A stretch of DNA of 26,160 nucleotides. Source: Spirogloea muscicola. Lineage: Eukaryota; Streptophyta; Zygnematophyceae; Spirogloeales; Spirogloeaceae. The DNA is taken from contig WELB01000377.1 in assembly GCA_009602725.1 (NCBI GenBank), positions 1 to 26,160 on the forward strand. The letters are read 5' to 3'. The notes below the pieces were generated by a model, which saw only the letters and a list, made by a program, of their open reading frames with translations, made no database searches and was not told the origin of the DNA. Shown in pieces: positions 2,964 through 25,188 of this stretch (positions within the stretch are counted from its first letter, which is position 1; the number at the start of each line of letters is the position of its first letter). Position numbers and translations under genes: made by a program.

Positions 2964-2969
2964 TCAGGA

Positions 2970-3033
2970 GAGAAGGCGCGCGGGGCGCATGAATTGAAAG
3001 GGAGGCCAATTCAAGCCAATACATTGTTCAGGA
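2970..3033 (-). repeat. 60-bp dispersed box, copy E, inside a retrotransposon ORF
   Basis: Reverse-strand copy between the reverse-transcriptase piece and the endonuclease piece. TCAGGA occurs at both edges (2964-2969 and 3028-3033). The box brings a stop in the frame of the reverse-transcriptase fragment. Confidence 0.7.
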
Positions 3034-3720: not shown

Positions 3721-4368
3721 ATGATTGACAACTGGTTGTCGGGCCTGCTGGCTCGGCAGCTGACCACCTACCTGGATATCAATGAGGAGGAGCTCCTCGT
3801 GAGCTTGCTTCCCGGCTGCGTCCAGCTCCGCAATGCGCGCGTCCGTCCGGACGCGATCAACGAGAATCTGTCCACTTCGCCACTTATTGTAGTGGAGGGT
3901 ACCCTGGCCTTCCTGCGGGTGGTTGTGCATCCCTTGCAAGCAGCCGTCGTCCAGATCGTTGCCGACGGTCTACATATGACCACGGAATTTCGGTAAGGCA
4001 AGAAAAGGCATGATGAGTACCTTTCCAGCCCTATGGTGTATGTACACAGCCAGATGTGCAGCAATTGAGCAATTTGTGTTGGGCTGACATACAAGGCAAC
4101 AGTCCCAGTTCCCTTAAAAGTGCAAGTGCATTTACAGAGAAAAACTTGTCACATGTCAATCACCTCGTCAAAGAAGCTGATATCAGGCTGAAAAAAACAA
4201 TGTCACAACTGACTGGTCAATTGCAATTCTGAGTAGGTCTGCAGATGATCCTTGGTGGCAACAGCAAAGGGAGGTTGCAGATAAGCACGTGCGGTGCAAA
4301 ATATATGAGCAACTGGATTCGAAGGTTAGAGGTGCTCTTAACACACCCTCCATTACGCTATCAGCCTG
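3721..4368 (+). CDS. VPS13-like gene exons 1-2: chorein_N domain
   Basis: Exon 1 (3721-3992) encodes the chorein_N domain: MIDNWLSGLLARQLTTYL, then the LLVSLLPGCVQLRNARVRPDAI stretch that matches the family pattern L-S-x-x-L-x-x-G-x-V-x-L-x-N-x-x-x-(R/K)-x-x-A. This is the opening that loads lipid at the donor membrane. Exon 1 ends in CG|GTAAGG in phase 2. Exon 2 (4237-4368) starts after GAGTAG and reads RSADDPWWQQQREVADK, equivalent to the charged linker after chorein_N in plant homologues. A second AG at 4243-4244 would give an immediate stop, which decides the acceptor. Exon 2 ends in CTG|GTAAGA, phase 2. Confidence 0.88.
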
Positions 4369-7300
4369 GTAAGAAACCTGCTCCGTGACACACAAGCTGG
4401 ACACTTTGAGCGTAAAGTTGACTTGTTGATCTGCGCTGTTGTGCAGGGATGTTTCGTGCACAGATCTCTTGAGCAGCGCAGGGCAAAGAGGACATCAGCT
4501 GCTACCGCCTGGGCACTGCTGGAGCATCTCAGTATAGCAGCTCTAAGCATTGTTGAAATTGAGATCCTGAACGCTTGTATTCGAGTCCCTTTCATCGATA
4601 GATATGGCAAGCAGCGAGCTCTCTGCTTAAAAGTGGCCAAGCTGTTTATGAAGAGAGGAAGTGAGAGTGGGGCAGGCGGCAAGGGTGGATTAGCAGGAGC
4701 ATCGTTGAAGATGGTCTTCGGAGCACTCACAGCAACTGCAGCTGCGGTTACAAAGATCTGCCAAATTACCGGTCTGAGCTTGTACCTAGAGAAGGAACGA
4801 GTGACACACAACAGAAAATCAGAATGTGATATCTTATCATTAAGAGATGGAAAGGTGGAGCCATTTCTGAAGGGAGTCATTGCAGGCAGCCAGACTGCAC
4901 AGGATGCTGAGGACAGAAGCAAGAGCGAAGACTATCAAAGAGGGAGTGAGGACAAGAACATCCTACCAGAGGCAAGGTCTCAGACAGGCAGGGGGCCATC
5001 CTTGCAGGAATGGCAAGTGGAAGAGGAGGTACCGATGCTTTCAGTAGCCGAATCTGAAGTTGTCAAGATGGAGAAGGTCTGTCTCCTGTCACCTCATAAT
5101 CACAAGCTATTCCTGAAACTGGAGCCCCAGCTGGCTGTTGCTCTCAACACCGAGGTTGATGAAGTTGCGCTGCACCTGGACATTGCTGATATTGAAGTTC
5201 TTTTGGACCTGAGTGGGAAGCTGACAGCTGCTGGCTATTCAAGTCCTGATGAGAACGCAAAATCTGATAGTCAGACAGCGAATGGCGGGGTAGAAACTGG
5301 TCAACAGAAAGAGCCGCAAAGCACTGTGGAATACTCGAAAGATAGGTCAGCCAGAGAGCTCTGGCGCTGGTGCTTGTCAAGAGTGCGGGACAACAGGCAG
5401 CAGGTCAATGAGATAATTTTGACCAGTTCCCTGCGGAGGAGGTACACCAAGACGTACGAGGCATGGCTTGTCGGGAAGTACTGGGGCCAAGATCCGAAGA
5501 CGAAAAGTCGACGAGGTACAGACATCATAGACAGATGGCAATTACAGCAGGAGAGTAGCACAAGCAGACTCACACCTAATCACCTTTCTTTGGACCAAGA
5601 GGCGGACTTTCTGGAGAGGTCTCTGCCAGCTGAAGCCATAGTGCTGGCCAGGCACATTGCTCGGCAGCGGGTCTTACTTCAGAAGGATGGCACACCTATT
5701 GAAGTTTCAAATCCTATGTTGCAACGCGATGTCACGCTCCACTGTGCACTGCAGCTTGGAATGGGTTACATTTCTGTGAGCTTGGCTGCTCCAGTAGACG
5801 CTCAGACCAGGAAGGTTGCAGAGATCCCAGCATGTAGACTTGCTTGGCAGCAGCTTTCTGCATCACTCGATTTTGCAAGTAGCGGTGTGCGGACAAGCTT
5901 GACATGTGGCGCTGTCCTTGGAGAACTGCTCAGTCTACAAGCGGACATACACTGCCACTTCACAAGATCAATGAGGGATCAAGGGCAGGTAGAGGAGGCA
6001 CCACGTATCCTCTTGAAGGGCAGCCCTGCTTATACTGGCATCGTAGAAGGTGCAGCCTAGCAAGTGCAAAAGCTTCCTCATCGTGTAGCCCATCTACTGC
6101 TGGCAATGTATTGTACTTATACTTCCTTGGCATTCTTGCAAGATTTAGTGCCTCTGTATGCACTGCTTCCTTCAAGGATCTGAGGCTCATTCACATACAC
6201 ATGTTACAAGAACTGACTAGCCTGTAGGCATCTGTCTTATGTATGGCAGGGCCTTATAAAGATGCCGGGGTCATCACCTTGACCAAACAGCTGATAACAT
6301 TCTGGCAGGCGACAAAATCTATGGTGTCTTCTGCTTGGTTTCGTACCCAGGTCTGCGCATCTCCAATGGAGAGGCTTCCAACATAGAGTGACTAGGGAGG
6401 CTTATGGTCCCGTATCTGAGTCTCACAACTGTGTGTATGTTTGCTACCTACAATGCTGTTAAAGTCTTCCCACTAAGAGACCTGAGATCATGCTTCTGAT
6501 CATTGGTTTGGCCCGATCATCTTTCTGTAGACATACTTCGGAAGAGACGATTGATAGCTAACATACCAGCTGCATCTGACTTTACGACATGCATTTGCAT
6601 TGGCCTGTGGCATATAATCTCTGCTTGTTCTAAGTGGACAATCGCTGATGCGCAGGCATCAGGGCCTTCAAATACCACCACCATCGATGTACACAACAGG
6701 GAAAGGCCTAGCACTGCTGCGCAGCCCTATCTTGTGTGCTCGCTCGCATTTCAGCAAAATGGGAGAACGTCTTCAGAGGATCTTGTGGAAGTTCAAATTC
6801 TCATGGGCGCCTTAGAGGTCAACGCTATACCGCAGAATGTTTCTGATTCTATCAATTTGTACAGTTGCCTTCGGAATGCATTTCAGACCACAGCCACATC
6901 TCAGGAGCCCAAAGTTGTAGCTACTGGAGCCAGATCTTTTGGTAGAAGCAAACGGGAGGAGCTAGAGTTGAGCACTAGCATGGAGATCCAGGAAGCAAGT
7001 CAAATACAGCTTCATGCTGTAGAATGGCTAGCTTCTCTCCTACAGACTCTTGCAGATGGAGTTCTCTTGGCAGTTCCAGCAATCAAATTGCAGCTTCTTG
7101 TGGATATAGACTGTCCAAGATTTGTATTGTCCACCGGTGAGCTTAAGAGGATAGATAGAGCAATACCAGGCAAGACTGGAGAAAGCGGCTGCTGATATGA
7201 AAGAATCGGCTGTGAAATGCCAGCCAGATGCATACAGGTGTTCATGACGGAGCCAAAGGCTAGGCAGACAGGGCGCCCTCAATACCCCCGTGTCAGCAGT

Positions 7301-10300
7301 AAGAAGTCAGATGAGCTGAGGGGAGGAAGAGCAACCCCGCTGCGCAAGCCAGAGGCTGCTGCAAGGGCCCGACCAGCGCGGCGGTGCAAAGCAAGCGCTT
7401 GGGAGCGCTGCAGGGACATAGACAGTCGCATACGGTAGCAGGACACCAGACCCAAAGGCACCGAGCCACCGGGAAGGGCAGCACCCTGCTCCCGGCGCCG
7501 CTGGTCAGCTTGAGAGGCCAGCAGCGAAAGTAACGAGGACCACCGACCCCCGTAACACCCATGGATGTCCATGGCCAGTGGGTAAAAGGTATCACCCGCC
7601 GGGTGGTCCTTGTACTTGTGCAGCTTCTTCCGTTCGGCTACCTTCACAGCGTAGCCGGTCTCAGAAGTAATGGGGCCCTTCGTCCGGAAGCTGTCGGTGA
7701 GGACAACGTCCATGAGGAGCCGCTTGCCACCTCCCAGGGGGACGCCGACCAGATCGACACGCCTCGTCCGAGGGACCCCATTGCGGAGGAGGATGGGCAT
7801 CACCCCAGTGCTCTCCAACGCCACTTGATATCCCGCCTCCTTGACGATGCCATACATGGCGTCACGTAGGAGGTTGTGGGAGCCCGTGCGCTCACTGCCT
7901 TTGGCACACCTGAGCATGTGGTCACCCATGAGCAATGAATCCTGCTCAATAAGCCCACATTCACATTGGGTCACCCCTGCCAAGCACAGGGATGGCAAGC
8001 CAAGACGGCGGCGCATAGCATCGCAAAACAAAGCATTCTCCATCCGCAAGCCCGCATGCAAAGGCAAAGCGCGGAGCCACTCAGACGCTCCCAGAGACGA
8101 AACAGATAGGAGCCGAGCCTGGCCTCGAGCATCTCCTTGGAGGAGACTCCGGAGATGCTCCAGTGGTTGCTCGTCTGGAGAAGGGAGGGTCTCCAGTCTG
8201 CTCATTGTAAATGCGGGACATTGGACCCTGCACTCCACTACAGCCAGCCCGGAGGACGTTAGTCAGACGCGATCAAGTAGACTTGCGCCTGACTTGAATG
8301 ACGAGTCAGGAGTACGGCAACGTGACACGAAGAGCTTGGCTGAGATTGCCTGGGACAACAGACCCAGAGCTAAGGCAACACAACATGCAGAGCCTTTGGA
8401 GGGCATGTCACAGATTTGGAATCATTATGAACTTTCTGTCGACGGCGCCACAATGACTTTGGAAAACTCTACATCAAAGCGGGGTGGAGGTCGGACTCTT
8501 CTTGAATTTACAAACGGTGCCGTCCATGCTTCCTTTCACAGGTACTTTGAATTGTGCCTCCTCGGCAGCACTCATTTCAATACTCTGGATATCTCAGTTG
8601 AGTTGGACTTCCATGTCTATGCTGGGCTTTGAGGCTGGTGAGGAACTCTTACGAACCTTGAGGATGTGTCCTTTCTGATGGGGATAAAGATGCACGATAT
8701 TATAAATTGTGCCTGCTCTTGCTGCAGGGAGATTTCTGCTATGCTCCTAAACGTGAGCAATCACGTCTCAGCAGCTATCAAGGCTGAAGTTCCGACTGTT
8801 CAGCTACACGTTACTCCAGAAGAAGCTGCAGTTGTCACAAGGGTCAGAGACGGTCGCTAACTGTAGTGAATGCTGTAGCTGCTGCCAGTTCTACACATCT
8901 TTCTCTCTGTGAAGAAGCCTTCTAAGAAGCCACTTTAGTTGAGAAAGGAAGCTTGTAGAGGCTTGCAGTCCACCTATTGATAAGGTTGGCGTGCTTGTTT
9001 GTTGCTTGCCTTTTTAACAATACTATCCAAGAGCCTAGCAAGCTTAGCAAGGCTTTCTGCTGTAGTCATCTACACAGTATATCTTGGTTGATATGTGAGT
9101 CTTGAATGATTGTGCACGCCTCTGCAGATCGCAAACCTCCTGATGGGGGCCAGCAAAAGTGATGGCCAAGGCTCTACCAAAGTGCACAGGCAAGAGGACT
9201 GCTCTGCCAGGTCTGGGCAATCCAGTGTGCCAGGCTTCCCAGTGTGGGTCCCCAACAGCGACTCCTACTTCTTGCATTTGCAGTTGGTTCTGGGCTCCTT
9301 GCAAGTGACTCTAGATAATCTCCCAGTTGACAGAGTGGGAAGCTGGAGGTCTGCATCGGCTGACGCAGGCGGCAAGCAAAGCGGCACCAGTAGTGACAAG
9401 GACTGGTCATTAAGCTCATCAAGAAGCATACGGAGAAGCCTCTCTCACAGGAGTTCCCAAAGTGCTCCCAAGGAGTCTGTTGAGCTGTTTCTGCAAGCTT
9501 TTACCTTGGTTGGCCAGCTTGGAAGCTTTCACCAAGGTACCATACAAGGTGGACTGGAACACGTCAGTCTCTCGGTCCTTCCTCCCAAGTCTCCAGCATC
9601 AGCTGCTGGTCAGTGGACTTCAGATAAGTCGTACTCGGTTGGAAGAGTCGATACAGATGAAGGGCCAGAGACTGTGAAAAAGCAAAGAAGTGTGCAAGCT
9701 GCGCTCACTATCCTGGATTGCTCCATCTACTTATCTGGCTTTGGTAAGGTTTTCCTGCTAGCAATGGACAGGGACCAGAGAGATCATCCATTCTTGAACC
9801 AGCATCTCAGTGCTGGTACAAGCAGCTCAAGAAGGGTGGAGTCTGAGTCTGAGGATGTACAAGAAACTGGCGCTTGTCTTTCTAAATACACAGTAGCAGA
9901 TATGAAATGTATACGGGATGCGAGAAGCACTGCAAGAGACAAGGAAATGAATAGGGAAATTGCAGATCATCAGTGGCTTTCGGGCACTCTGAGTGTGAGC
10001 CAATTTATTGTTCAAGATGCAACAAGTGGAAGTATACTGAATGAGGCTGTACGAGCTCGTCATGAGTTACAATCAAACTCCCCAAGCTCAGCAGCTCAGA
10101 GTATGAAGGTGGCCATGCATGTTAGAGGAAAATTTCAGGGGCTTAGTGTTACAATCCAGGTATGTGAAGTCTCCATCATCATTTCCAGAATCAGACTTGT
10201 GATATAAGCGCTGACTAATGAGCTCGTTTGCCCTTGTCTACCTTATATCCCGTCATGACTGCATTGTCAAAGGATGCTAAAGCGGTACTACAGTCTATGC

Positions 10301-13300
10301 AGGACATGTGGTTCCTTGCTTACCAAAGTTAAGGTCATATTTGTCACCAATACTACTAGCAGTAACTGCCTCACTCGTCTTCTTGGCCTGCTCAGGATGG
10401 CCTTGTTGTGCTGGATCCACTAGCTATGGTTGAGTTGTTGCACCTACCAGAACGTATTACTACATCTGTGACAAGAATGTCAAGAATGATAGGCATTAAG
10501 ATTGGTCGCTCTTCGTCTGGTTGGGAGGCTCCACCACAGCCTAGTCGACAGCAGGACACAGGAATGAAGGACAATACTCATGGTGGTGACCAAGTGTCTG
10601 ATTGGTCTTTGTTTTGGAAGGGCGAGGTGTCTATTGATATCCAGTCGTGCGCGCTGGTGCTTGCCCGAGGAAGCACAACTTTGCATCGTTTGTCTTCTTC
10701 TCGATGATGAGGAAGCAGCCATAGGAATCCTTGTCTGAAATAACCAGAGGATTTGCACAGAGGATTTGCCAGTGATAATTTACGTCACAGCTGCAAAGGC
10801 AGCTCATCTTTGTTCTTGTTGACGTCATTCTCAAAGTGTATTTGTAGTACTTGCTGAAGGCAGTGATTGCTAACATTGCTTTGATTGCTCCGCAAAGGCC
10901 ACTAAGATTTCAGCCCCATCTTCTGTGTGCCTTCCAGTTCCTCCAGCAGGACTTCTTCTTCAGGCAGATGCTTCTACGTCTGCCCTACTGCTAGCACAGC
11001 AGTTGGCAATCGGATGTCATTGGAGAGGCTATCTATCCATGGACTTCAAGCTCATTCACTGGGAGAAAGCAAGTCCATGCGAATGCTACAATCACCTGAT
11101 AGCACAGGAGATGACACAGTTCATGCTGACAGGTGGGAGGACTGTCACAGCTTGAGATCTGCTGGCAATCTAGCAATTCCATGCTTGCAGGTCGGTGCTG
11201 ATGCATTGCAATACATGTGGGGTGGACTAGTTGATCAAGAGCACGTTATGACATCCAGTAAGTTCATTCAACCTGTGTGCCAGGTACTGAAACAAAAAGT
11301 AACGAGCTTACTTGCAACTGCTCCTCTTTGTGCAGCTTAGAAGGGCTGTCTGCCATGTCAGGGCCAAACGAAGGAGATGGTGATGATGTTAAGTCAAGCA
11401 TGCCTCGTCATGCATGCCGATGTCAAAGTTGACGACGCCACAAGTAAGGGTATGCTACATACATACAGCACTAAGTCATATGCATCTATGCTTTCTTTGA
11501 GGATTTATTTCCTTCCTGTTGTAATAATCCGGGCTTAGAGCTATTCACGTGGGTGTGCTCGATGACCCCAGGGCCTGCTTCTTCAAGGTCAAGTGATGCA
11601 AAGGTAGTTGAAGAAGTGGAGAAGATTGAAAATCAAAAGCAGGCAGAAGGCAGCCAGGACAGGGACGGCTTTGAGGAACGGTGCATCTTGGACAGACTTC
11701 AAGTACTGGTGGAATTAGCAGATGCTGAGCAGGTCCATTCTACTACCTGGAGCGGAGCATTGACTGGCAGGTGCCAGATTTGCGGCGGTGAGATAGTTGT
11801 GACAACATCAGAATTTGAGGTGAACTTTCTGACTCTTAGATTCAGAGCTTGCTGCAAGAATGAAACGTTGATCCATGGCTTATGATTTTCAAAACAGGCC
11901 CTCATTGGCTCTCACCTTGCAGCCTTGACATGGGAGTAAGATTTCTTATTGTGCTCCACACTTGCAGCTGGGTACAATAAGATGCCGAATGCAAATGCAT
12001 CAGAATAATGCATTGAAAGTTAAGATGCAAAATTGTCACCTTGCACTCTTCAGCTTCTGGTGAATCTTATTGCTCCTCTACTAGCACTCTTGTCTACTTC
12101 CTCAAAAAAGTCTACAACAACGCAAAGTGCATCAAGTCCTCAGAGCTCCAATCCAGATGTGCAAGTTGTTCAGAGTGGAACATCTGAAATCTCTCCCCGT
12201 GATGGCAAGTACTTGACATTGGCCTTGCTGCAGTGGCAAAGTTTTGCTTGCTACTGACCACTCAAGCTTCAAATCACAATACTAGCTCGGAATCTCTTTG
12301 CATTGTGCAGGCTCTGTGATAGCAATCTACGATTGTAATGCATGCCAGTACTTTGCGGTTGAAGATAGTAGTGATTGGCAGAGTCACACAACAGGGATGA
12401 GAAAAAGGGGAACCAGAGTAGCAAGAGCTAAGGCAAGAATTGGTTATCGCCTTGTTGGGGAGAGGCACTACGGTGTTGGCAAAAGGGCTCTTTTCCAGGT
12501 GAAGGGTTAAATCAAGTACAACACTGGCAGCTCTCACTACTACAGCACTGACTTATGTGAACGTTCAAGTCAGTCGGGTGTCCTTGTTCAACAGGCATAC
12601 TTCATCTTCTAGTATGATATGAATGTACTGGGCCTATGATGTCCTCTCAGTTCTCCATGATGCTGGCCTTCAGGTGAAATATGTGGGAAGCCGGCGGGAC
12701 TGGTTCTTCTTAGAATCTCTACAAGCATCAAGCCCTGATGGGGAGCCTCTCAAAGTAAAGTATGAAACCAGCTCTGGTATGGTTGAGTTAGCTAGCACCA
12801 ACACCAAGTCCTGGGAGCTGTGGCGGCTCGAAAAGGTCTCAAGCTCAGAAGACAACACAGATGAGGACTTCACCGCTTTTGAATGCAAGCATGGGCCGAA
12901 GCTGGCATTGATCAATAAGAAGAGTAAGCGAGCCTTGTCCTTCATTGGAGGTACGCCAACTCTGGTGGAGGCAACGCAGTCCTCTGCAATCAGCCTACAA
13001 GTCCTTGCTGAGCCCACGACGAGCATGGGTGCAAGTATGAATGAGGAGCCAGGTTGCATGGAGGCAGCCTGGGAGGACGAGCTACTTCCAGATGATGTCA
13101 AGGCCAGGGAAGCCGGCCTTGCAACATGTAGTGAAGTACCAGCAAATAACAGCCACAGCCACCATAGTCTCATGGAGTCTGCAGACACACTACAGCTTGC
13201 TGAGATGAGGGCAAGGCTTCCAGAAGTTTTATGTCAATTTGATGGCCCATTGATGTTCACGCTCCTGTACGAGCCAAGGGGAGACGTGAGGCAACTGCTG

Positions 13301-16300
13301 CCTCTTGCCAGACTTAAGCTTCAGGGAAGGGAGGGGATTGCGCACATGTTCCCAAGAAGGGCTCAAGCATTTCTGAAAGGCCTCATGGTGCTGGAGTACT
13401 TTGACTCTCGCTGCAGCCACTGGTGAGCACAGTATCTATCTTTTGATACTTGCTGTTGTGTGTTTGCCCTGCACATCCACCATATGCTGTATGCCGATGA
13501 TATAATGAAGGCTCTTGCTCCTGCTGTGCCAGTTGTGCTAATATGACTCTGTACCTGAGCATGATGCTTGTGGAACTCTTAATGTGTCCTACCATAATTG
13601 TGTGCTATTCTGCTCAAATATTTTGGCTGCTTTGTGCAGCTTTATAACCAATAGCTCGGTGAGCTGAGTGCAGGGAGTCTGTCATAAAGCCAGTGAGCTT
13701 GGATTTGTCCATAATCATACGAACAGATTCAGCATACATTGACATGCCTACATATTCCATGTCTCCTGTCATTGTCCACCTTGAAATCGGCAAAGTAAGC
13801 TCTGAAGCAGACATACGAGTCTTTGTGAGCCTGTCAACACGAGTTGTTACGGTCTGCAGCTAATCGGCATGGAGCACTTCTTTTGTGGCATAGCATTGAT
13901 TGTAGACAATCAACGCAGTTCCTTCATGCATGTGGCAGAATAAGGAGGAGTCTTTGTGTAATCCACTAGCAATTGACACCGTTTTTCCTGTCATTCCATC
14001 AGGTTGATGCGCTCCTAAGCGAGCCTATCTTAGATATGGGTTTGTTTGTGGCTGGAGCTTTAGACCTGGCTCAGCCATACGGCATCAAGTACTCTCCTGC
14101 TTTTTCCTGCATGGTACAACTGTCTGACACTTGGCTCATATACCCTCCTTCCAGCACTTAGCTCACATAACATCCTGCATTTTCACTGGACTCTGGTCCA
14201 GTGCAAATTGTTGTGTGCAAATACGAAAAAATGTTGTTGATTGCAAATAACCATTGGTCTCTGTATTCAATGACTTGATGTCAACCTGCCTTGCAAGCTC
14301 GAGGTAACACATCAATCGAGCGAGGATAGAAAGTGTTGACTCATTGTCATACATCATGGCACATCTGCACTTGCAGGTCAAGAACAACACAGCAACCAAG
14401 CTGTGCTGCAGCTTTGATACTGATGATACACAGAGGCAGGGAGCAGTCAGGCCCCATGATGCAAGTCCATTTCTCATCAGGTGCTATTGCCTCTGCTGAG
14501 CTCCATGTCCACACTGCGCAGATTTCCCACCTCCACACCAAGTGCACATACTAACGTAGCTGCTCATGATTTTCGTAAATCAAACCCAGACTTTCTCACA
14601 GCTATGTTAGCTCCTATTTTGCTTAGAAGCTTCAAGCCCTCAATCCCTTCCATCTTGGACATTTTTTGCCAGAAAGTGCCATCTGTTGAGTTAAGAAATC
14701 TCCACCTCCTATTGACTGAGTAATACAACTCGATACAGGCACACAACCTCACGCAAGGAAGGAACCGCAACCCAGCTATGTGATTTTATATCGCTAAAGT
14801 TGCAGGCAAATAATGGCTATAGCACTGAGCCACTGCTGCAATCCCTGCTTAGCACAGGTGTCAGAGCAGTGCGCACCCGCCTGCTTTTTGGACAAGGTGA
14901 GGATCAAATCACCTTTGGGTGAAGCAGATGAAGCACTTACACATATCAGGACTATGACAGTCCTTCCTTTGTAAGAGTTATTGAATGCCTCATTGTGTCT
15001 AGCCTGCAACTATGCTTTTTTCTAGCATAGAAGCTGGTGCATTGCTTGATGACTGACCTTGATCTGCCCTCTGTGCAGACAATGAAGGATTCAGCCCTGG
15101 TCCATACATTGTTCTTGACGTCAGCAAGCCTGCGGTATGCTTCTCTGACTGTGACTGTGCACTGTTAACATTATCTCTGGCATGAGAGAACAACATTCGG
15201 ATAGAACTAGGCAAAACTATCCGTAGTCAATGTCGTGCTTGTTGCTTTGACTAACTAATGGTCTACTGCTTTTCTTACATGCAGAGTGGCCTGACGTTAA
15301 GCCTGTCACCCTTACTTACAATACGTAATCTGACTGGAGTGCCCTTGGAGCTCTCTTTTGACCAAACTGGAAACAAGACCCTAGTGCTTTCAAATTTGGA
15401 AGGCAGCAGTACAGAATCCAGTCAATTGATGAGGCTGGAAAGTGGGGATGTACTGGATGATATTATAGTATCATTCCAGTCCCTTGATTTGCAAAGAGAG
15501 CATCAAGGAGTCCTTGCTCAGATGATACTTGGTAAGGAAGTCATGCATGCATGATAGAGCCTGTCCTCCTCCTATGTTAAGTGAAGGGTAGCCTTTCCTG
15601 ATCAGTCAGGTGCCTGGTCATCAAGTCAGACTTGCTGCAGACCGATTAAACAGTTGCATAGAGAGTCCATTGTTACAGAGTCGCTGAACAAACGCTGCAT
15701 CTGTATAACATAGCTGGCACGCAATCCTAAATCATGCCGGATTTTTGTACAGGAGAGGATTCGCTGTCAATACGGCCAGCAGCTGGCACATGTCAAGATG
15801 CAGTATGGACTTGGTCTGAGCAGGTATTCAGAGCAGTGCCAGTCCACCTCTCAGGGTGGATGGATAAAGTCCGTGCTGGTGTAACAAGAACTATGGGAGG
15901 AGTCTGGGGCCAGAGCCTCGAGTCCACCTTTGGGACCCTTCATTGCAAGTCTCACTCCAAAGAAAACATTCATTTTTTGTTGAGGACTACATGCAGAGAC
16001 GTCCCTGTGGATAGCGGAGGCCCGCAGGTTTACGTTCAACAGCGGGAGCTAGCCTTCCTCCCCACACTGCGTGTGCAGAATCTACTCACTTCCACTGTAG
16101 GAATCTCCCTTGTCGCTTCTTCAGAAGGTGAGGCCTTGTACTCACGGGACACCTTGCACCAGCACCAGTACTTGATTAATACTTTCTTGTTACCTGCTTG
16201 ACATTGCTCACTGAGTCAAAAAGTGTATTTGACTTGTTCTGCTGCGGTTGTACTGCACCATTTCATGGAGCTTATTGTTCTTCTCCTACAGAAGCAGCTT

Positions 16301-19300
16301 CTGCAAGGCCCCCCACAATTGGACCCGGCTCGAGCACCAGTTTCGTGGTAGAGGGCAATGCACACACTGCTTGCGCGTATGCAGATCCTGAGCACAGTTT
16401 CCTCATTGTCCATCATATGGACCTTCGCATGAGCTCAGCGCCTATCCCTTTGAAGATACTGCCGAGTACAGGGCAACTGAATGACGTTTTTCGGAAAGCA
16501 GAAATAGGTGGAGAGGCTTTCAAGGAGATTTTGATTGGGACAGACGAGAAGCTTTCAATTCAAGTGAAGATGGACCAGGCAGCAGACGGTGTCAGCCAGG
16601 TTGCCGTCTTGCTCGCTCCTTCACTCGCATGTGCGGCAGAATTTGTAGTGTGTCAGTCTTGGCCTTGCTATTGTATTTCTCAAACTATAGGTGACTTTTT
16701 TGCAGGTCATAATAAAGTCAAAGCATACGCTGCGAAACAGTAGCCAAATGAGTCTCTTATGCTCTCCTGGAGTTGCACGGGCTGTCAGATCCAATCCAAG
16801 GTTCATACAAAGACTGGCAACCACGTATTTGCATACGATCCTGTCACATTGCTCTTCCGTCGAACTTGCAAAATGCCAGGATACCGATATCTTCCCAGCA
16901 TTGTCTACGAGAGTAGTCATGTGGACCATACTCAGGTCATTTACTTCCTTACTTCATGGTGACAGCTGGTGGAGAATTGGCAGACAAAAGCGCCTGGAAT
17001 GGCCAGCTGAGATTGAAAGATGCACTGAAAGTCAAATACAGAATGGAGGAACTCCAGTTTTCAACTTGAAGCCAGGCTCTTCGCTCTCGTGGCTGCCCCG
17101 GTAATGCAGCTGCAGGCCACTTGTTCTTTAAATCTGAGCTGCGCAATATATGCAACAGCATGAAATACATGGCTCTTGTCATACTGATCCATCGCAGCAA
17201 TTATTGCCAACTGCAGAGGGGGAATTATACTGCTAATGGCGGCAGAGAAGGGCCAAGCATTTGGTAAGCTGGATCTAAATGCACTTGCCAGCACAACAGA
17301 ACTCACTCTCCTCCAGGAACATTCTCGACAGTCTCACAACGGCATAGATCGCCAAACACTTGATCAGCCATTGACTGCTCAGACGGTTGATCATGAGGTG
17401 CCACGAAGTCTTCAACTCGGTGTAAAGCTTGTAGATGCTGCGGGACTGGTCCAGCTGGCTCCGCGACATGTGATTGTCAACCAGTGCCCCGAGTCGCTCC
17501 TCGTCTGCCAAGATGGTTTGCAGGTATGGCCAAATATGTAACGACAGTGTTGGTCATTGGAAGGACAATTTGGACATTTAAGCACTGTGTATCCTACTGA
17601 GAAACTGCATGGAGAAGGCAACATGTACGAGCATGACTTTCTATCGCCCCTAAGCTTTGAAGCACAGCCCAATATTGCTCCCATGTTGATGCAGGCTGAT
17701 GAGCATCCTCACATAATGCTAGGGGTGGATCAAAGGGCGCCCTTCCATGCCCAGGCCAATGAGACAACTCAATCATCTGTTGCCGGTGCACAAGTTGCGA
17801 TCCGATTGAAGCCAAAAACAGACCCGAGGAATTGGGACTGGTCTGGTCCACTACATGTGGCCTCGCTTGGTAACTTCTCTTTCCGCATCACGGGCAGAGG
17901 AGAGCTTGCAGGTAATGTTGATGAAAGAAGAAATGAAGGCAAGTGTAAAATGCTGACAATTTGGTGCTCATCTATGCCCTGGTTAGCAAGGATCGCAGGC
18001 AAGAAGAGAAAGCATGACCCCTAGGCCCTTATAATTGGATTGAGCTTGAGTGCCTGAAGCCTTGGAAACAGTGGGACATGAACTTCTTGTATCATGTACA
18101 TTGAAGCAATCAAGCTCACTGACATGGTTGCTGTAACAGATGCACATGTGCGATTTGCTGTAGCTGAGGTGATAGAGGAGGCGCCTTCACTCGTCATATA
18201 TATCAGGCCACAGAGAGCAGATGCTGTACCTTACCGCATTGAGAATGAGCTCCCAGACAGCATCTCATTTCACCAAAAGGTCGGGATACCTGGCAACAAT
18301 AAGGTCTCCAAGATGTTGTCACTGCTTCTTACAAGTACTCCGTGATATTTAAGGTGTCTCAGAGGAGAACAGCTTAGAAGTGCAATTGCGTGCAAAGACT
18401 CAAAGGTACTTCTGTGGTATGCTGTGGCATGGCATGTCACAGCATGCAGATGCTTGGGAAGTCCTCGATGGCCACGAGGCTGTTGGGTATGTCTGGGATG
18501 ATCTGACACTGCCTCGCAAGCTCAGCATTTCACTACCTGGCAAGTGGACCAGTCTCTTGACCTATGCAGCTGCATTTTCACATTCCTGCTCATCGATAGC
18601 ACCCGACGATTTGCATGTCTTTCTTGTCCTTGCCATTCCATTGCCATGCCCCTTCAGTAATGGCCTACTTATTAGTTTCACGACACAAGGTTGCAGGATA
18701 AAAGATAGGGGCAAGTGGAGCTGCGGTGTCCTTATATGAATTCTTACAATCTGCGTGCTGCCTAGTGCTGACAACTTGAGCCATGTCTGTTATTGCCAGG
18801 GACAACTCTGCAAGACGAGGAAGTCAATCTTGATAAGTTGAGAAGCTGGGAGCTCTTCAGAGCCTTTAGGAAGGCTATAACATTTAATATGTCATCCATC
18901 CTTCCTGCAACCTTCACTGAGAACGAAGTCATGAAGAGATCTGCATCAAAGAGCACAGCAGAAGTACGAGCCTTGGGTTACGAGATCTACGCAGAAGGAC
19001 CAACTAGGGTGCTAAGGATCAGTGAGGCGGGCAGTGAGGAGAAGGGACTGAGGGGAGCAGGAGCCAGAACATCCATTGCCAAGATTGACATGAACGTGGC
19101 AACCATTGGGCTTAGCATTATGGAGCCTGGCAAGGTGTCTGTAAGCATGCATACCCTCCAGTAACCTCACAATACTCAGTTCACTGCATTTATTGCCTGC
19201 TTAGATTGCTTGTGATATTTACAGGCATTATGAGGTTGTCCTTTGTCTGAATACTTCTCGGGACAGTATGCATGATGGCTTGTCAAATGGAGCTGTCTTG

Positions 19301-22300
19301 AAATGACTGTTCAGGCACTTGAATGTGCCCCAAAGCTTTCGACATAGTATGTGCTAGTGCAAGTAGGGGAGCTTCCTAATAAAAGCAGTTCATTTCTGTC
19401 AATCAAATGCATATATATGATTTGAAGGATACACGAGCTGTGCAGGAAGACAACCAGGAGGCAGACCATGATGACTTGGGAGCAGACAATTTTGTGCCCT
19501 TCTTGTATGCAAGGGTTGAGAATCTTGCTGTGATACTAGATATCACGAGTGACTCGACTGCCTGCCAAGTCAAATCGCAGGTGCAGCTCCCCAGTGCGTT
19601 TCACATTGTTCCTTCACCTAATCGAATAGGTTCTACTTTCCTGGGTCTGCAACGAATATGTTTATATCATGTCATAGCTATATCTCCATGTTGGTCAGTA
19701 TTAAGTGAGCAGAAGGGTGGTAGATCGAAAAGGCCCATAAAGCATGTGTTACATGTTGGTCGAATCTTTTGCTAATGTATACGTACAACAAGAGTAGCTC
19801 TGTGCAGATTTACAAGTTTACGTACATCATGTCTGCAACACCTTGACATCTTAGAGGACGTGTAACACCTACGACATTTGGTGTCTAGCGGTAATGTCAT
19901 GACATAGCAGTGTTGCTGCTCTGACAGAGGATGGACATTGACGCCAAGTGGACTGGAGCTCCACAAATTGTGATATTCCGGCCCCACAGAGCACAGAGCT
20001 TGGATGAAGGCACCCCATTTTTTCATGCTGCATTTGTCATGTCTAATCTTCCTGGCAGCCCACTCCATCTGCGTTATGCATTCCTCCTCATCCAGGTATA
20101 TTATCTAAGATCTTTTTACACCAACTGTATGCAAGGCTGTGGGGGCCTGTTATTAGTCAGATGTTTTGCACATCTTGCAAGGAACTTCATCTTGAAATCA
20201 TCTGCTACCCCCCTTGTAAGCACTTATAGCAGCGGCCTTCTGACAGCCTAGCGGTGATGCCTGATGTCGGCTGCCTCCTTGGGAAGTTGGTCACCGTGTG
20301 CTACACATTTTATGATTGAAGCTTGGGGGCTGAGTCTGTAGACTCCACCCTTACTTATGAACCGACGGTGGTCACGCTCCAAGCACCCAAGATAGGCCTT
20401 TCGGGTGGAAAGGACGTTCTTCCTATCTGTATTTGCAGTAAGAATTATAGTCATGTCTACGTGCTATTCTTACAGACTCTGGAGCTCAATATAGACGGGG
20501 ACACTGTTATGAGGCTTGTGCCTTTCTCTAGATCACGACTTCAGCCATACATCTCAACGCCAAGCCAGCCCCTATACTTTGAGCAGCTTGAAGTCCAACC
20601 AACTAAGGTTAGTGCGACAGACATATGTGAGACACATTCCTGTCTGGATTATAACTCTCTATCTCTCTCTCTCTCGCATGCGCCCATATGTGCTCGCATT
20701 GCCATCTACATCACCTTCCACGGCCACTAGAAGTCTGGAACACCCATCCTACCTAATACCTAAATATTAGGATGAAAATGCAGGTGCCGCATTGCTGCTT
20801 AAGAGAGTCACCTCTTAGCTACTAAGTCTCTTGTGAGAATGATAAGGGCTACTTACACACAATGCATGGGTGGCATGAGGCAGATTGTAGCAAGCTTTGA
20901 GCCTGGAAGCCCCAGAGCAGACCTGACATCAGCTCAGGAGACTGTTCGAGCGCTGCTTCAGTCCATTATAAAGGTAACCCTCAGGCTATGTAAGAGCAGA
21001 TTTATGAGAAATTTGACCCTCAGTTTAGCTAGTTGATCCGCTTCTCTGCACATCAAGACACCAGTACACACAGCAGGGTCAGAGCCTGCGTGGTTCTTGT
21101 CCTCCATTCCGAGACAAGTGATTTGTGCTTCAAGCTCATGTAGCAGCTAAGCTGATCATTACAGAAGCAGACTAGTCCTTGATGTACGCACATTCCCTCT
21201 GCAGGTACCTGCTGTGAAGGGCCGTGTCATTAAATTGAATGGGATCTCTTTGCAGCATGCATTATTGACATACACGCAGCTCGCAGTCAAATTTGCCCAG
21301 CATTACTCTTGGTAAGTGGCAGCTCTGGCTTTCTGATGAGGTTTTGAAAAGTTTGCTTGGCAAGAAAATGATGGTCATATGGACTCAGGCAATGATGAGA
21401 GATAATGAGCATGACAGTGTCCCATCACCTGCATTTGGTCGAATTGTGTGAGAGGCTCCCAGCAGACTTGCGGAAATACTTATGCATTCATTGTTCTTAC
21501 TATGTGCGACAGGTATGGGATGCGGGCTGTTTACTTAGCACGGGGTAGCGAGTTGCTGCCACCTGCGTTTGCTTCTCTCTTTGACGACTCAGCTGCCTCC
21601 TCAATTGATGCCTTCTTTGATCCAGCCAACTTATCTTCTGCAAAAAATATCACTCTAGGTTGATTCTGCAGTCTGTTACTCGAGGAAGAACTGGACAAAC
21701 TTTCTATGCAGGTCAACGATTAAATTGCAGGCTGAAGAGTCATTTGATCTGGAGCTGACTCAGCCCTTGCTACAAATGACCATGTCACATATAAGCACAA
21801 GTAGCAGCCACGGGCTCTACTTGCCATGCTTGTCTGCTGAGGACGTTGTATCAATCTGACACACATGTCGGTGAGCACATGCAGGAGCTTTCAACTTATT
21901 ACGGCAGGGCATAGGTCGTGAAGGCAAATATGGGACCACCCGATATCTGGGCGATTTTGAGAATAAGGTAATGAGGTTGCATATTGTATGGACACGGAAG
22001 TGAAGATACAATTCACTGCAAATGTGGAGAAGAGATGTGCGGTGCAGGTGAAAGGGGGAAGCTTGCACAACATCTGATTATGGGTTCATATGTTACTGCT
22101 GATATCAATCTTCTGGAACCCAATTAGCACTCTTACCTGAGATATTGCAGCTTGCTCTGTCAGCCTTGCTCACACAGGCATCCTACTTGACAGGTAAAAG
22201 AAGCAGGTTCTAACCTGGCTTATGCTGTTGTTACTGAAGTCTCTGACTCTGTACTCAGAGGTGCTGAAGCGGCTGGAGTTGATGGACTGGTATGGTCATG

Positions 22301-23836
22301 CACACTTTCCTCTTGAAGTTGATCTTGCACAGCACAGGTCGCATGTATAAGTGATAGCTGTAGTGCGCTGTACGGATTGTTTACATATAAGCCAATCATC
22401 TGTGCTCTTTTCTCATGGAAATTTTACTGTCAACAGCTACGGGGCTTCAGAAGGGGAATTCTAAATATAGCTCTCAAACCAGACATGCTGAGGACCGCAG
22501 TGCGAGGAGGGGCCCATGGCACATGTCGCATTCAGCTAGATCGGTCAGTGGGTACTGAAGAGGTATGTCTCAGAATGTGCTGACACCTCATGCATAGGTA
22601 GTGATAGTTGGCGCACTGTCAAGTTTGCTGAGATCTTGCTAGATGCATAATTGGAGAAGATTGGAGGAAGTGTAGGAGACCATCTCGGATGTTTTGCCCA
22701 CGTATCGCCAACCAGTCTCTTGTGAAGCAGCAAATGAGTCAAAGTGACGAGGATAGCGTCCTTGAATAACTGAGGACTCGGAAGGTCCACATGGGGCTAT
22801 TGCGAGCCTTGCACATGCTGTATGCAACAAAAGCCATAAATAAGCTCTTGTGCAGGTCTACTTGGAGGGCTACCTTCAGGCAACACTAGATGCACTCTTC
22901 AAGCAAGAGTACTTACGGGTCAAGTTTGACAACGACCAGGTCCTGTGCCAGTCATGATGCCTTAGCCATAATTACTCTCATGCGCTATTGCACTGTAAGG
23001 GTATTAGCCTGTACAAGATCACAGCATCTATTTCCTTATTATGGCTACTCTGAGAAGCAAGGATAGTCAGGTGGCTGTCCAGCAGATCTGGAGGGGGAGG
23101 GGGAGCACATTCTCTCAGTGCTCAACCCATAAGCTGTGCCTGTTTGCAGGTCGTCGTGAAGAATTTGCCGCCTAATAGTACTCTGAAGGATGAAATTGTT
23201 GCTTCCGTGCGGCACTTTCTGGTTGGCGAGGGCCTTCTTTCCGGAGAGACCTCGCAAGCTGCTGCACTATCACTCAGGAGGCTGCATGGGGAGCAGGTGA
23301 ACAGCAAGCAGCTGGCAAGCTTGCCCAGCAGCCACATACTGTGCGGCCCAGCTAAACACTCCTCCGTGCAGTCCTGCTTTGCACCGCAGGTTGGTTGTAG
23401 TGTCCAACACCTCCTCAATCGTCTCATTTCTGCGGAGTCATTCTAGACATTGAAAATCTCCAATTGATGACTGCAGGATAGACAAATGTGGCCTGCTATG
23501 AAAGCCCTCTGTGAGCAGCTGGCAGTCATCATTGTGGTGCGGTCCATGCGAAGGCGAGCCCTGAAACTGCTGCCAAGGAAGGCAAAGAAACAGCTAGGCT
23601 TTGATGACAAGCCTACACGGAAGAATGAAGAAGACGAGGAACAAGCCGAGTTAAGAAGCATGGAAAAGAGAGGGAAGGAGAAGAGTGGCAAATGGCGAGG
23701 ACTGAGGCCAGCTCTCATCCATCTCGTCTTCTCAAGTTCACTAGCATACTTGGATGGCCGCGTCTGCCGACGCATTCCATACCCCTTTGTGCGTCGTGTA
23801 ATTAGCAGCTTCTTGTTGAGTTTTGTTAATACATGA
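3721..23836 (+). CDS. VPS13-like bridge lipid-transfer protein, about 41 exons
   Basis: This spliced gene encodes a VPS13/BLTP-family protein of roughly 3,500 residues. The family forms rod-like hydrophobic grooves that move phospholipids in bulk at membrane contact sites. What I see, in order, is an N-terminal chorein_N domain, groove repeats, the SHR-BD/VAB region with its (L)VNxxxxxLxVxQ and YVWDDLTLPRKL motifs, then the VPS13 C-terminal domain ending in IPYPFVRRVISSFLLSF, the ending typical of plant VPS13M proteins. There is no C-terminal PH domain, as in plant members. I chose ATG 3721 because chorein_N starts at the very N-terminus in this family. The stop is TGA 23834-23836. Exon positions are given in the segment entries that follow. 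Phases agree at most junctions; 10657-11361 is unresolved. One exon (7137-8183) is interrupted by an antisense retrotransposon, so function depends on splicing it out. Confidence 0.9.
4482..5988 (+). CDS. VPS13-like gene exon 3: N-terminal groove repeats
   Basis: This is the longest exon, 502 codons without a stop. The acceptor GAGCAGCGCAG|G is the only one upstream that restores the frame left by exon 2 without a stop. The residues match the VPS13 N-terminal block: a beta-rich stretch around IVEIEILNACIRVPFID that corresponds to the VxIxNVHIRYED region of other members, though diverged, a linker rich in charged residues, the LFLKLEPQLAVALNTEVDE strand pair, and ELWRWCLSRVRDNRQQ...LRRRYTKTYEAWL, which parallels the (L)WWRFA...LRRRYIxLY motif of plant VPS13. 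The end may be 5988 (CAG|GTAGAG, phase 0) or 6049 (GAAG|GTGCAG, phase 1). Confidence 0.82.
5989..6655 (+). other. Intron 3, longest native intron
   Basis: This 667-nt stretch has no ORF that resembles the family and no repeat shared with the flanks. It is read as an intron between exons 3 and 4. A CCCAG at 6345-6350 could be an acceptor of a small missed exon, but I see no VPS13-like reading after it. Confidence 0.55.
6656..8541 (+). CDS. VPS13-like gene exons 4-5, split by a retrotransposon
   Basis: Exon 4 starts at 6656 after GATGCGCAG in phase 0 (or at 6663 if exon 3 ends at 6049). It encodes beta-rich repeats with PYLVCSLAFQQNG, VQILMGALEVNAIPQ and LQLLVDIDCPRFVLST. A GTGAGC donor follows at 7137. 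Exon 5 resumes at about 8181 or 8184 with GRVSSLLIVNAGHWTLHS, equivalent to the STKLLLDLGNLxIRS strand of plant homologues, and ends at 8541 in CAG|GTACTT, phase 2. Between them lies an antisense retrotransposon flanked by CTGGAGAA. Without the insert the frame runs straight on from exon 4 through GELKRIDRAIPGKTGE to GRVSSLL, so the two look like one former exon. Without splicing the sense frame hits TGA at 7193-7195. Confidence 0.8.
7176..7183 (+). repeat. Target-site duplication, left copy (CTGGAGAA)
   Basis: Eight bases identical to 8175-8182. In the VPS13 frame the copy reads ACT GGA GAA, and the other reads TCT GGA GAA, so both keep the same codon phase. Confidence 0.72.
7184..8174 (-). 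mobile_element. 5'-truncated non-LTR retrotransposon inserted in the VPS13-like gene
   Basis: This 991-bp antisense insert carries the C-terminal part of a non-LTR retrotransposon polyprotein and its 3' UTR. It lies between two CTGGAGAA copies (7176-7183 and 8175-8182), read as a target-site duplication. The similarity to the copy at 1874-3340 also fades at about 8175, independently of the duplication. Truncation at the 5' end of the element is what target-primed reverse transcription usually leaves. No poly(A) tail is seen; the 3' UTR instead holds a short stem, GGCTG...CAGCC (7206-7230), like the hairpins elsewhere in the window. The host frame is sense, so the element is antisense to the gene. 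Confidence 0.82.
7279..8174 (-). CDS. Retrotransposon ORF C-terminus: zinc knuckle and restriction-like endonuclease
   Basis: About 298 codons without stop or frameshift (the open frame runs on to 8238 by chance into host sequence). After a conserved helix region LLSVSSLGASEWLRALPLH comes a zinc knuckle QCECG...DHMLRC, spacing C-x-C-x12-H-x3-C. Then follows the endonuclease fold: RTRRVDLVGVPLGGGKRLLM, with D in RRVD and D in LLMDVVLTD, then AERKKLHKY supplying the lysine, and FYPLAMDIHGCYGGRW. That is the PD-(D/E)XK-like arrangement of early-branching non-LTR elements (R2/R4/CRE-like). The tail ends SSDFLLLTRGY. It would nick target DNA for reverse transcription; without its reverse transcriptase this copy cannot move itself. 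Confidence 0.78.
8175..8182 (+). repeat. Target-site duplication, right copy (CTGGAGAA)
   Basis: Second copy, directly followed by VPS13 coding sequence GGG AGG GTC. The AG at 8179-8180 inside this copy, or the AG at 8182-8183 on its edge, would serve as the acceptor that splices the element out. Confidence 0.72.
8728..10159 (+). CDS. VPS13-like gene exons 6-7: groove repeats
   Basis: Exon 6 (8728-8842) follows TTGCTGCAG and reads EISAMLLNVSNHVSAAIKAE, then VPTVQLHVTPEEAAVVTR, the 'phi-x-phi-x-phi-(S/T)-x-(E/D)' strand-plus-helix pattern seen repeatedly in VPS13 grooves. Its donor AGG|GTCAGA is weak but is the one in phase 0 that joins exon 7. Exon 7 (9128-10159) follows CTCTGCAG, is 344 codons, starts IANLLMGASKS and ends GKFQGLSVTIQ|GTATGT, phase 0. 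It contains a long polar serine-rich linker around 9340-9480 and beta strands such as YFLHLQLVLGSLQVTLDNL. Confidence 0.82.
10396..11819 (+). CDS. VPS13-like gene exons 8-11, borders partly unresolved
   Basis: Exon 8 starts at 10396 after GCTCAG in phase 0: DGLVVLDPLAMVELLHLPE. Its end is uncertain (10626, 10656 or 10687). From 10898 to 11257 two overlapping forward frames both look protein-like: one with KISAPSSVCLPVPPAGLLLQ, the other with NRMSLERLSIHGLQAHSL and ALQYMWGGLVDQEHV. I cannot join them with consistent phases. A likely exon at 11362-11443 reads GQTKEMVMMLSQACLVMHAD and ends A|GTAAGG in phase 1, which fits exon 11 (11539-11819), ending in EIVVTTSEFE. The stretch could hold small introns, a non-canonical site or a frameshift. 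Confidence 0.55.
12054..13422 (+). CDS. VPS13-like gene exons 12-14
   Basis: Exon 12 (12054-12204) begins LLVNLIAPLLALLSTSSKK after CTCTTCAG. It ends in GATG followed by GCAAGT, a GC donor; the only nearby GT gives the wrong phase. Exon 13 (12311-12498) continues SVIAIYDCNACQYFAVED. Exon 14 (12674-13422) follows GCCTTCAG and reads VKYVGSRRDWFFLESL, then a polar linker, then QFDGPLMFTLLYEPRGD and LMVLEYFDSRCSHW. The last block matches the family motif (L)xVEYYNxxxxxWEPLIEPW, split by a TG|GTGAGC donor so that the tryptophan codon is completed by exon 15. Confidence 0.82.
12205..12310 (+). other. GC-AG intron
   Basis: Starts GCAAGT and ends TGTGCAG. Phase 1 on both sides gives D-G-S-V-I-A-I-Y. 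The nearest GT, four bases on, leaves phase 2 and breaks the frame of exon 13. Confidence 0.7.
13674..15134 (+). CDS. VPS13-like gene exons 15-20
   Basis: Exon 15 (13674-13851, or ending 13823 at GTGAGC) has no long open frame of its own but clearly codes: W-ESVIKPVSLDLSIIIRTD continues the WEPLIxPW motif of the family. Exon 16 (14003-14113) reads VDALLSEPILDMGLF. Exon 17 (14377-14480) gives VKNNTATKLCCSFDTDDTQ, the family pattern 'V-x-N-x-T-G-x-x-L' where the SHR-BD region begins, followed by the RPHDASPFLI strand. Exons 18 (14522-14555), 19 (14806-14896) and 20 (15079-15134) are small; the last reads DNEGFSPGPYIVLDVSKPA. Exon 18 is the least sure; the phases of 17-18-19-20 are mutually consistent. 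Confidence 0.74.
15285..17523 (+). CDS. VPS13-like gene exons 21-25: SHR-BD/VAB region, first half
   Basis: Exons are 15285-15531, 15753-16127, 16292-16644, 16706-17100 and 17217-17523; all five junctions agree in phase (1, 1, 0, 2, 0). Exon 21 shows LTLSLSPLLTIRNLTGVPLE, exon 23 an amphipathic strand series, exon 24 VIIKSKHTLRNSSQMSLLC and the closing GTPVFNLKPGSSLSWLPR, and exon 25 APRHVIVNQCPESLLVCQDG. These 'phi-x-N-x-(S/T)-x-x-x-L' repeats are the hallmark of the VPS13 adaptor-binding (VAB/SHR-BD) domain, which in other species binds organelle-specific adaptors. The partner in this alga cannot be inferred. At exon 25 a second acceptor at 17196-17197 leads to a stop, which decides for 17217. 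Confidence 0.87.
17695..20095 (+). CDS. VPS13-like gene exons 26-31: SHR-BD second half and following strands
   Basis: Exons are 17695-17911, 18140-18279, 18443-18539, 18800 to about 19140, 19446-19580 and 19928-20095. Diagnostic pieces are NWDWSGPLHVASLGNFSFRI, then VPYRIENELPDSISFHQK (family: LPYRIEN...YYQK), then GYVWDDLTLPRKLSISLPG (family: YAWDEPTLPHKL), VPFLYARVENLAVILDIT, and the strand RMDIDAKWTGAPQIVIFRP that corresponds to the (IQ)IDNQLP...P block. Exon 28 ends in CTG followed by GCAAGT, a second GC donor fixed by phase. Exon 29 can end at 19134 or 19140; both are phase 0. Confidence 0.88.
18540..18799 (+). other. GC-AG intron
   Basis: Starts GCAAGT and ends TTGCCAG. Phase 1 on both sides gives ISLP-G-TTLQDEE. 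The GT four bases on is out of phase. Confidence 0.68.
20096..20475 (+). other. Intron 31, no feature seen
   Basis: A 380-nt intron inside the C-terminal part. The family pattern joins LLIQ directly to TLELNID across it, so no missing exon is expected. Confidence 0.65.
20476..23836 (+). CDS. VPS13-like gene exons 32-41: VPS13 C-terminal domain
   Basis: Exons are 20476-20607, 20884-20973, 21205-21311, 21513-21658, 21885-21967, 22194-22289, 22437-22562, 22856-22939, 23150-23296 and 23477-23836. Every junction agrees in phase. The protein reads TLELNIDGDTVMRLVPFSR, HYSW-YGMRAVYLARGSELL, SLFDDSAASSIDAFFDPAN, GREGKYGTTRYLGDF, VLRGAEAAGVDGL, RRGILNIALKPDMLRTAV, VYLEGYLQATLDALFKQEYL and VVVKNLPPNSTLKDEI. 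This follows the plant VPS13 C-terminus block for block. The last exon is basic and charged before the final SLAYLDGRVCRRIPYPFVRR helix and stops at TGA. In the family this end sits at the acceptor membrane with an amphipathic ATG2_C-like helix. Confidence 0.92.
20654..20676 (+). repeat. CT microsatellite in an intron
   Basis: A run of CT dinucleotides broken once by an A, within the intron between exons 32 and 33 of the VPS13-like gene. Confidence 0.75.
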
Positions 23837-24920: not shown

Positions 24921-25004
24921 TCTAGAAGAGAAGAGCAGCCTGTGCTAAGAAGCACCCAACCGGACTGACAGCAAGATAGAGGAGCTCGCCCGTAGAAAAG
25001 AGGA

Positions 25005-25020
25005 GCTGGCAGAAGCCAGC
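25005..25020 (+). repeat. Hairpin core GCTGGC-AGAA-GCCAGC
   Basis: Six-base stem; upstream GAGCTCGCCCGTAGAAAAGAG corresponds to the shared upstream part, but the downstream part has diverged to an A-run without the GGACAA motif. Confidence 0.6.
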
Positions 25021-25188
25021 CAAAAAAACGAAAGAGCCACAACAGGCAACGAAAGAGCGGCTTCTGCGCTGTTACCTTACCATCCCCAAGCACTGGGCTC
25101 CGCTTTGTGTAGCCCTAGTCCATGCACTAGTCTTTGCCTGACCAGTAGAACAGCGAGCTCGGGCTCTCCCTGTAATGCAAACAGAGCC

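What the first reader, a model, noticed from the sequence alone, without database searches (positions are those of the whole stretch)
7137..8184. A retrotransposon landed inside a VPS13 exon and may have become an intron
Seen: CTGGAGAA flanks a 991-bp antisense element. Removing the element and one duplicate (7184-8182, 999 nt) restores one continuous frame, exon 4 text ...RAIPGKTGE joined to GRVSSLLIVNAGHW. Unspliced, the sense frame stops at TGA 7193-7195, ten bases into the element. A consensus-like donor GTGAGC at 7137 and AG sites at 8179-8180 or 8182-8183 would remove the element plus 15 or 16 host codons, in frame. Inference: either the insertion was turned into an intron using a dormant host donor and an acceptor at the duplicated target site, or this is a disrupted allele. 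Target duplication supplying a splice acceptor is an attractive mechanism for intron birth.
Basis: partly seen in the sequence, partly recalled or inferred. Interest (0 to 1): 0.85.

Follow-up and report, generated by a model that had tools for sequence, protein, structure and literature searches.

The report
Young LINE insertion disrupting VPS13 exon
A truncated retrotransposon recently jumped into an exon of one of three similar VPS13 genes in this genome; the other two copies still show the untouched site, and nothing in the sequence indicates that the insert has become an intron.

Summary
A ~991-bp antisense LINE fragment lies in a VPS13 exon between two copies of CTGGAGAA, and an in-frame TGA follows ten bases in. 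The same genome holds two more collinear copies of the gene (C275, C3; 88-91% identical). Both have one CTGGAGAA, no element and an open exon: two natural empty sites. The element is a 5'-truncated member of a family with at least 39 other long copies at 95-100% identity. At only 4 sites does it differ from all 15 copies compared, against 14-16% intron divergence between the gene copies, so the insertion is young.

Intron birth is not supported. The donor at 7137 is exon sequence conserved in all three copies. Its score is ordinary, but the proposed acceptors lie in the lowest 9% of this gene's modelled acceptors. In 5,000 simulated insertions of this element into the gene's larger exons, 62% gave a frame-preserving pair of the same type and 9.8% scored as well. 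The splice would delete 15-16 conserved residues. Likeliest is an ordinary LINE insertion disrupting one redundant copy; only RNA can exclude splicing.

The parts
3721..23835 (+). VPS13-like gene, comparative model of 48 exons (about 3,440 codons; the end and several exon edges are uncertain)
   Evidence: Model from the three copies; VPS13_VAB domain, E 1.3e-10, above cut-off
6656..8541 (+). Exon that holds the insertion (887 nt without 7184-8182)
   Evidence: continuous and open in C275 and C3
7176..7183 (+). Left copy of CTGGAGAA
   Evidence: AGAA may belong to the element's end
7184..8174 (-). 5'-truncated LINE copy (991 bp), antisense to the gene; its 3' end is at the low coordinate
   Evidence: 39 other long matches; longer copies
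7279..8174 (-). End of the LINE reading frame inside the insert (C-terminal part with Cys/His cluster; stop codon at 7279-7281)
   Evidence: the frame as listed runs on into host sequence to 8262
8175..8182 (+). Right copy of CTGGAGAA
   Evidence: CTG also occurs in longer element copies
7193..7195 (+). TGA in the exon's frame, ten bases into the element
7137..7142 (+). GTGAGC, donor-like exon sequence conserved in all three copies
   Evidence: score 7.3, 58th percentile of 137 donors
8179..8183 (+). Two candidate acceptor AGs (8179-8180, 8182-8183), both weak
   Evidence: Scores 4.2 and 3.2, 9th and 6.5th percentile of 138 acceptors

Best explanation
A LINE (non-LTR retrotransposon) transcript was copied into a VPS13 exon by target-primed reverse transcription at a CTGGAGAA site. 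Copying stopped early, which left a 991-bp 5'-truncated copy antisense to the gene and a short duplicated target. If the insert stays in the mRNA, translation ends at 7193, near residue 842 of about 3,440 in my model, so this copy is most likely broken. Two other copies of the gene, without the insert, remain in the genome and can cover the loss. Shown: the insertion, both empty sites, the truncation, the family, the three copies, the in-frame stop. Inferred: the target-primed mechanism, loss of function, tolerance through redundancy.
For: Two empty sites with one CTGGAGAA each. 39 other long copies of the element at 95-100%. All 9 loci continue past the window copy's 5' end. 14 of 15 copies share the same 3' end AGAAAGCGGC beside unrelated flanks. 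A longer copy codes for a reverse transcriptase (RVT_1, E 7.4e-18). Another truncated copy, L006, has a 6-8 bp target duplication, read by eye. Youth: 4 private sites in about 990 bp against 14-16% intron divergence. Proposed acceptors weak and the splice arrangement common by chance. Three collinear blocks.
Against: No transcript is available, so retention of the insert is not shown. Outside the insert the window copy shows no decay: no stop in the modelled frame (though the model was required to be open in this copy) and a tip dN/dS of 0.37 against 0.30 and 0.39; this fits either a recently broken or a still working copy. The donor at 7137 is of ordinary strength. Target duplications are not uniform in the family: L023 and L026 show no clean one by eye.
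Confidence: 0.85

Rival explanations
1. The insert is removed as a new intron, from the host donor at 7137 to an AG in or beside the right target copy (8180 or 8183). The protein loses 15-16 residues and is otherwise full length.
For: Donor 7137 scores 7.3, 58th percentile of 137 donors. Both pairs keep an open frame and rank 4th and 6th of 384 frame-open pairs. No decay outside the insert. Exonic insertions of another retrotransposon were seen spliced out in a plant (PMC12112155, passages).
Against: Acceptors at the 9th and 6.5th percentile. In 5,000 simulated insertions 62% had a pair of this type, 14.2% reached 10.5 and 9.8% reached 11.5; in 3,000, 54% had a best pair of any type as good as the best here. 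Stronger sites inside the element would compete (donor 7238, acceptors 7413 and 7623). The splice removes residues that differ at only 2 of 16 positions among the three copies.
Confidence: 0.06
2. Splicing of this transcript is disturbed in mixed ways: strong sites in the element (acceptors 7413, 7623, donor 7238) are used with host sites and give several non-coding isoforms. Compatible with the best explanation and also a broken copy.
For: Acceptor 7623 scores 8.9 and 7413 scores 8.4, above the median real acceptor of 8.1; donor 7238 scores 8.9, above the 75th percentile of 8.4.
Against: Scores only; no RNA. The matrix was trained on a predicted model.
Confidence: 0.25
3. The target duplication is shorter than 8 bp, with microhomology (CTG at the right, AGAA at the left) at both joins. 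The insertion remains real.
For: CTG occurs in the longer copies at this point, and AGAA is part of the shared 3' end in 14 of 15 copies. Taken to the limit the strict duplication is one base.
Against: L006 shows 6-8 bp at its own site (by eye), so longer duplications do occur in the family.
Confidence: 0.3
4. Assembly error that put a repeat copy into the gene.
For: The element is a high-copy repeat; no reads were available.
Against: Both joins are exact and leave a duplicated target that matches the empty sites; the copy has 4 private sites not seen in the 15 others.
Confidence: 0.03

Closest known systems
5'-truncated LINE insertion by target-primed reverse transcription (general knowledge)
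   Same: Shared 3' end, variable 5' end, short target duplication, reverse transcriptase in longer copies
   Different: Nothing essential; 3' end is not a poly(A) tail but GCCGCTTTCT in the element's sense strand
R2-type LINEs with a C-terminal restriction-like endonuclease
   Same: Reverse transcriptase matches R2 (and LINE-1 ORF2) chains at E about 1e-5; Cys/His cluster, SHN and spaced acidic residues after it (motif recalled)
   Different: Endonuclease fold not shown (best hit an R2 protein, E 0.14, not significant); inserts beside unrelated flanks in the copies read, not at one fixed site
Introners (PMC9860276, passages seen)
   Same: Element in an exon with a short target duplication that could offer a splice site
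   Different: No evidence of splicing; the element is a LINE remnant of ordinary kind, and its acceptors here are weak
Intronization of new ONSEN retrotransposon copies in Arabidopsis (PMC12112155, abstract and passages seen)
   Same: New retrotransposon copy in an exon
   Different: ONSEN is an LTR element and its splicing was seen in cDNA; here no RNA is held

Membership tests
LINE (non-LTR retrotransposon) | Reverse transcriptase in intact members | tested here: met
   L010 frame of 799 codons, RVT_1 E 7.4e-18; the window copy is too short to include it
LINE (non-LTR retrotransposon) | Constant 3' end with variable 5' truncation | tested here: met
   14 of 15 copies share AGAAAGCGGC; 5' ends differ in the window, L006, L023, L024, L026
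LINE (non-LTR retrotransposon) | Target-site duplication | tested here: met
   Window copy against two empty sites; L006 6-8 bp by eye; L023 and L026 not clean
LINE (non-LTR retrotransposon) | No long terminal repeats | not tested
   No complete copy was read end to end
R2-type (restriction-like endonuclease) LINE | Restriction-like endonuclease fold after the reverse transcriptase | tested here: inconclusive
   Models of mean pLDDT 34.7 and 45.5; fold search without significant hit
Introner | Spliced precisely from transcripts | not testable with these tools
   No RNA data
Introner | Good splice sites carried by the element or taken from the target copy | tested here: inconclusive
   Host donor ordinary, target-copy acceptors at the 9th and 6.5th percentile; arrangement common in simulations
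Introner | Many family members sit in genes as introns | not tested
   Gene context of the other copies was not annotated
VPS13 | VAB adaptor-binding domain | tested here: met
   PF25036 E 1.3e-10, 40.8 bits, cut-off 22.6
VPS13 | N-terminal (chorein) region | tested here: inconclusive
   PF12624 E 0.033, 12.4 bits, cut-off 80; no such hit for a longer N-terminal piece

The most novel reading that the evidence does not exclude
The insert is already removed, in at least part of the transcripts, as a new intron that uses a pre-existing exonic donor and an acceptor supplied by the duplicated target: intron birth caught in one gene of a triplet whose two sister copies still show the ancestral exon.
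Probability: 0.06. Interest if true: 0.65.

Novelty: new member of a known kind. Interest (0 to 1): 0.27.

Why it matters
As it stands it is an ordinary but well-resolved retrotransposon insertion. Its value is as a test case: three collinear copies of one gene, one hit and two empty, allow the effect of a fresh exonic insertion on splicing to be measured inside one cell with built-in controls. If splicing were shown, it would be a very young intron with its ancestral exon still present twice.

Tried and rejected
A first MAFFT run was killed and redone with a lighter method. Two exon-finding runs (one search stopped early through a fault in my script, over-split) were replaced. The final model still has doubtful parts: two exons of zero length, some weak splice sites, and an edge near 18334 where copy A has a stop.

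Exon skipping as a rescue: the exon is 887 nt, not a multiple of 3, so skipping it would shift the frame. Decay of the window copy: not seen, but the model was required to be open in that copy. Structure of the LINE's C-terminal part: mean pLDDT 34.7 alone and 45.5 with four sequences; fold search without a significant hit. Pfam named no VPS13 domain in most pieces of the host gene taken singly. DNA primase small subunit as a yardstick of copy number gave two loci, not three, so triplication is claimed for this block only. The organism was not identified; paper searches on one candidate alga did not bear on it. Paper searches: (no hits). Passages of two papers were read; the others were seen only as listings.

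Full report
What was claimed and what is there. The window holds CTGGAGAA at 7176-7183 and 8175-8182 only, with TGA at 7193-7195 and GTGAGC at 7137. The sequence between codes, on the minus strand, for the end of a retrotransposon protein. The described features are real and at the stated places.

Empty sites. Searching the window's own genome (153,112,186 bases, 471 contigs) with 5000-7178 and with 8183-10207 gave three places each time: the window's contig C377, C275 and C3, the latter two at 88-91% identity. Alignment shows both other copies running through the site with one CTGGAGAA where the window has two: C275:73850-73857 and C3:223602-223609. In both the exon is open and uninterrupted (893 and 890 nt, against 887 in the window without 7184-8182), and no intron begins at 7137.

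Three copies of a block. Collinearity runs through the gene. The downstream neighbour is on C275, on C377 beyond the window, and on C3. The upstream neighbour is on C275, C3 and the contig C447, which may be the missing left part of the window's block (inference). The three gene copies are about equidistant: dS 0.151, 0.158, 0.152; intron divergence 0.152, 0.156, 0.142. One yardstick family, DNA primase small subunit, gave two loci rather than three, so I claim three copies for this block only.

The element. A search with 7130-8200 listed 48 matches, among them 39 long ones (over 900 bp) besides the window's own, at 95-100% identity; only 40 of 2,384 candidates were scored, so this is a lower bound. 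All 9 other loci read continue beyond window 8177 as CTGCAGCACGGG, so the window copy is 5'-truncated. L010 has an open frame of 799 codons with a reverse transcriptase (RVT_1, E 7.4e-18) that matches LINE-1 ORF2 and R2 chains at E about 1e-5. Of 15 copies compared (of the 39), 14 share AGAAAGCGGC at the 3' (left) end; L024 differs there. CTG at the right join and AGAA at the left are thus common to element and target, so the strict duplication lies between one base and eight. By eye, truncated L006 shows 6-8 bp and L024 about 5, while L023 and L026 show none that is clean. The C-terminal part has a Cys/His cluster and acidic residues that recall the restriction-like endonuclease of R2-type elements (motif recalled); the fold test was inconclusive.

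Age. At 4 positions (7369, 7579, 7938, 7942) the window copy differs from all 15 other copies. That is 0.4% of about 990 bp, and an upper bound if the source carried some of them. Half the intron divergence between gene copies is about 7.5%. The insertion then falls in roughly the last twentieth of the time since the copies separated (inference, assuming similar rates).

Could it be an intron? From a comparative model of the three copies I took 137 donors and 138 acceptors. The donor at 7137 scores 7.3, at the 58th percentile. The acceptors score 4.2 (8180, 9th percentile) and 3.2 (8183, 6.5th percentile). In 3,000 simulated insertions of the same element into exons of 250 nt or more of this gene, all had at least one such pair, and 54% had a best pair of 12.7 or more. 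In 5,000 more, 62% had a host donor with an AG in or just beside the right target copy, 36% with a donor score of at least 5; 14.2% reached 10.5 and 9.8% reached 11.5, the observed scores of the two proposed pairs. So insertion alone often gives this arrangement, and the observed one is in the upper tenth, not beyond it. Stronger sites lie inside the element (donor 7238, acceptors 7413 and 7623) and would compete. The splice would remove 15 or 16 residues (GELKRIDRAIPGKTG, or the same shifted by one and one longer), which differ at 2 positions among the three copies. Limits: the matrix is small, rests on predicted introns of which some are doubtful, and says nothing of branch points or expression.

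Selection. Over 3,428 codons (14 dropped for gaps or N), tip changes were 167 synonymous and 201 non-synonymous in the window copy, 154 and 147 in C275, 166 and 208 in C3: dN/dS 0.37, 0.30, 0.39. In exons 1-5 alone it is 0.78 in the window copy against 0.52 and 0.52; in the hit exon 0.31 against 0.19 and 0.53; after it 0.29 against 0.27 and 0.34. No stop occurs in the modelled frame of the window copy outside the element, but the model was required to be open there. With so young an insertion this cannot decide between a dead and a spliced copy.

Host gene. VPS13 is supported by the VAB domain (PF25036, E 1.3e-10, above cut-off). The N-terminal hit is weak and was absent for a longer piece.

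Comparison with print. Some introners take a splice site from the target duplication (PMC9860276, passages). A new ONSEN retrotransposon copy in an Arabidopsis exon was seen spliced out, although exonic cases were the less usual ones (PMC12112155, abstract and passages). The proposed mechanism is thus not new in kind, and here it lacks evidence.

Verdict. A young, 5'-truncated LINE insertion in one of three VPS13 copies, with two natural empty sites in the same genome. Intron birth is possible but not indicated.

Noticed in passing
window 1877-3027 (minus strand): Remains of a second, related LINE family (54% protein identity to the first over the aligned C-terminal part); one search listed 145 match rows in the genome, the window's own included, with 144 of 19,605 candidates scored.
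   Followed up: partly
C275, C377, C3 and C447 of G000: Three collinear copies of the block around this gene, about equally diverged (dS about 0.15), which suggests a triplicated or hybrid genome at least here; one yardstick family gave only two loci.
   Followed up: partly
upstream of the C3 copy (C3 about 227,000): A 236-bp piece of the same LINE's 3' end, 99.6% identical to window 7179-7414, lies in the opposite orientation just upstream of the region aligned to the gene in C3.
   Followed up: no
window 24949-25692 (plus strand): Open frame with a weak match to Retrotrans_gag (E 0.0015, below the curated cut-off), probably a piece of an LTR element.
   Followed up: no
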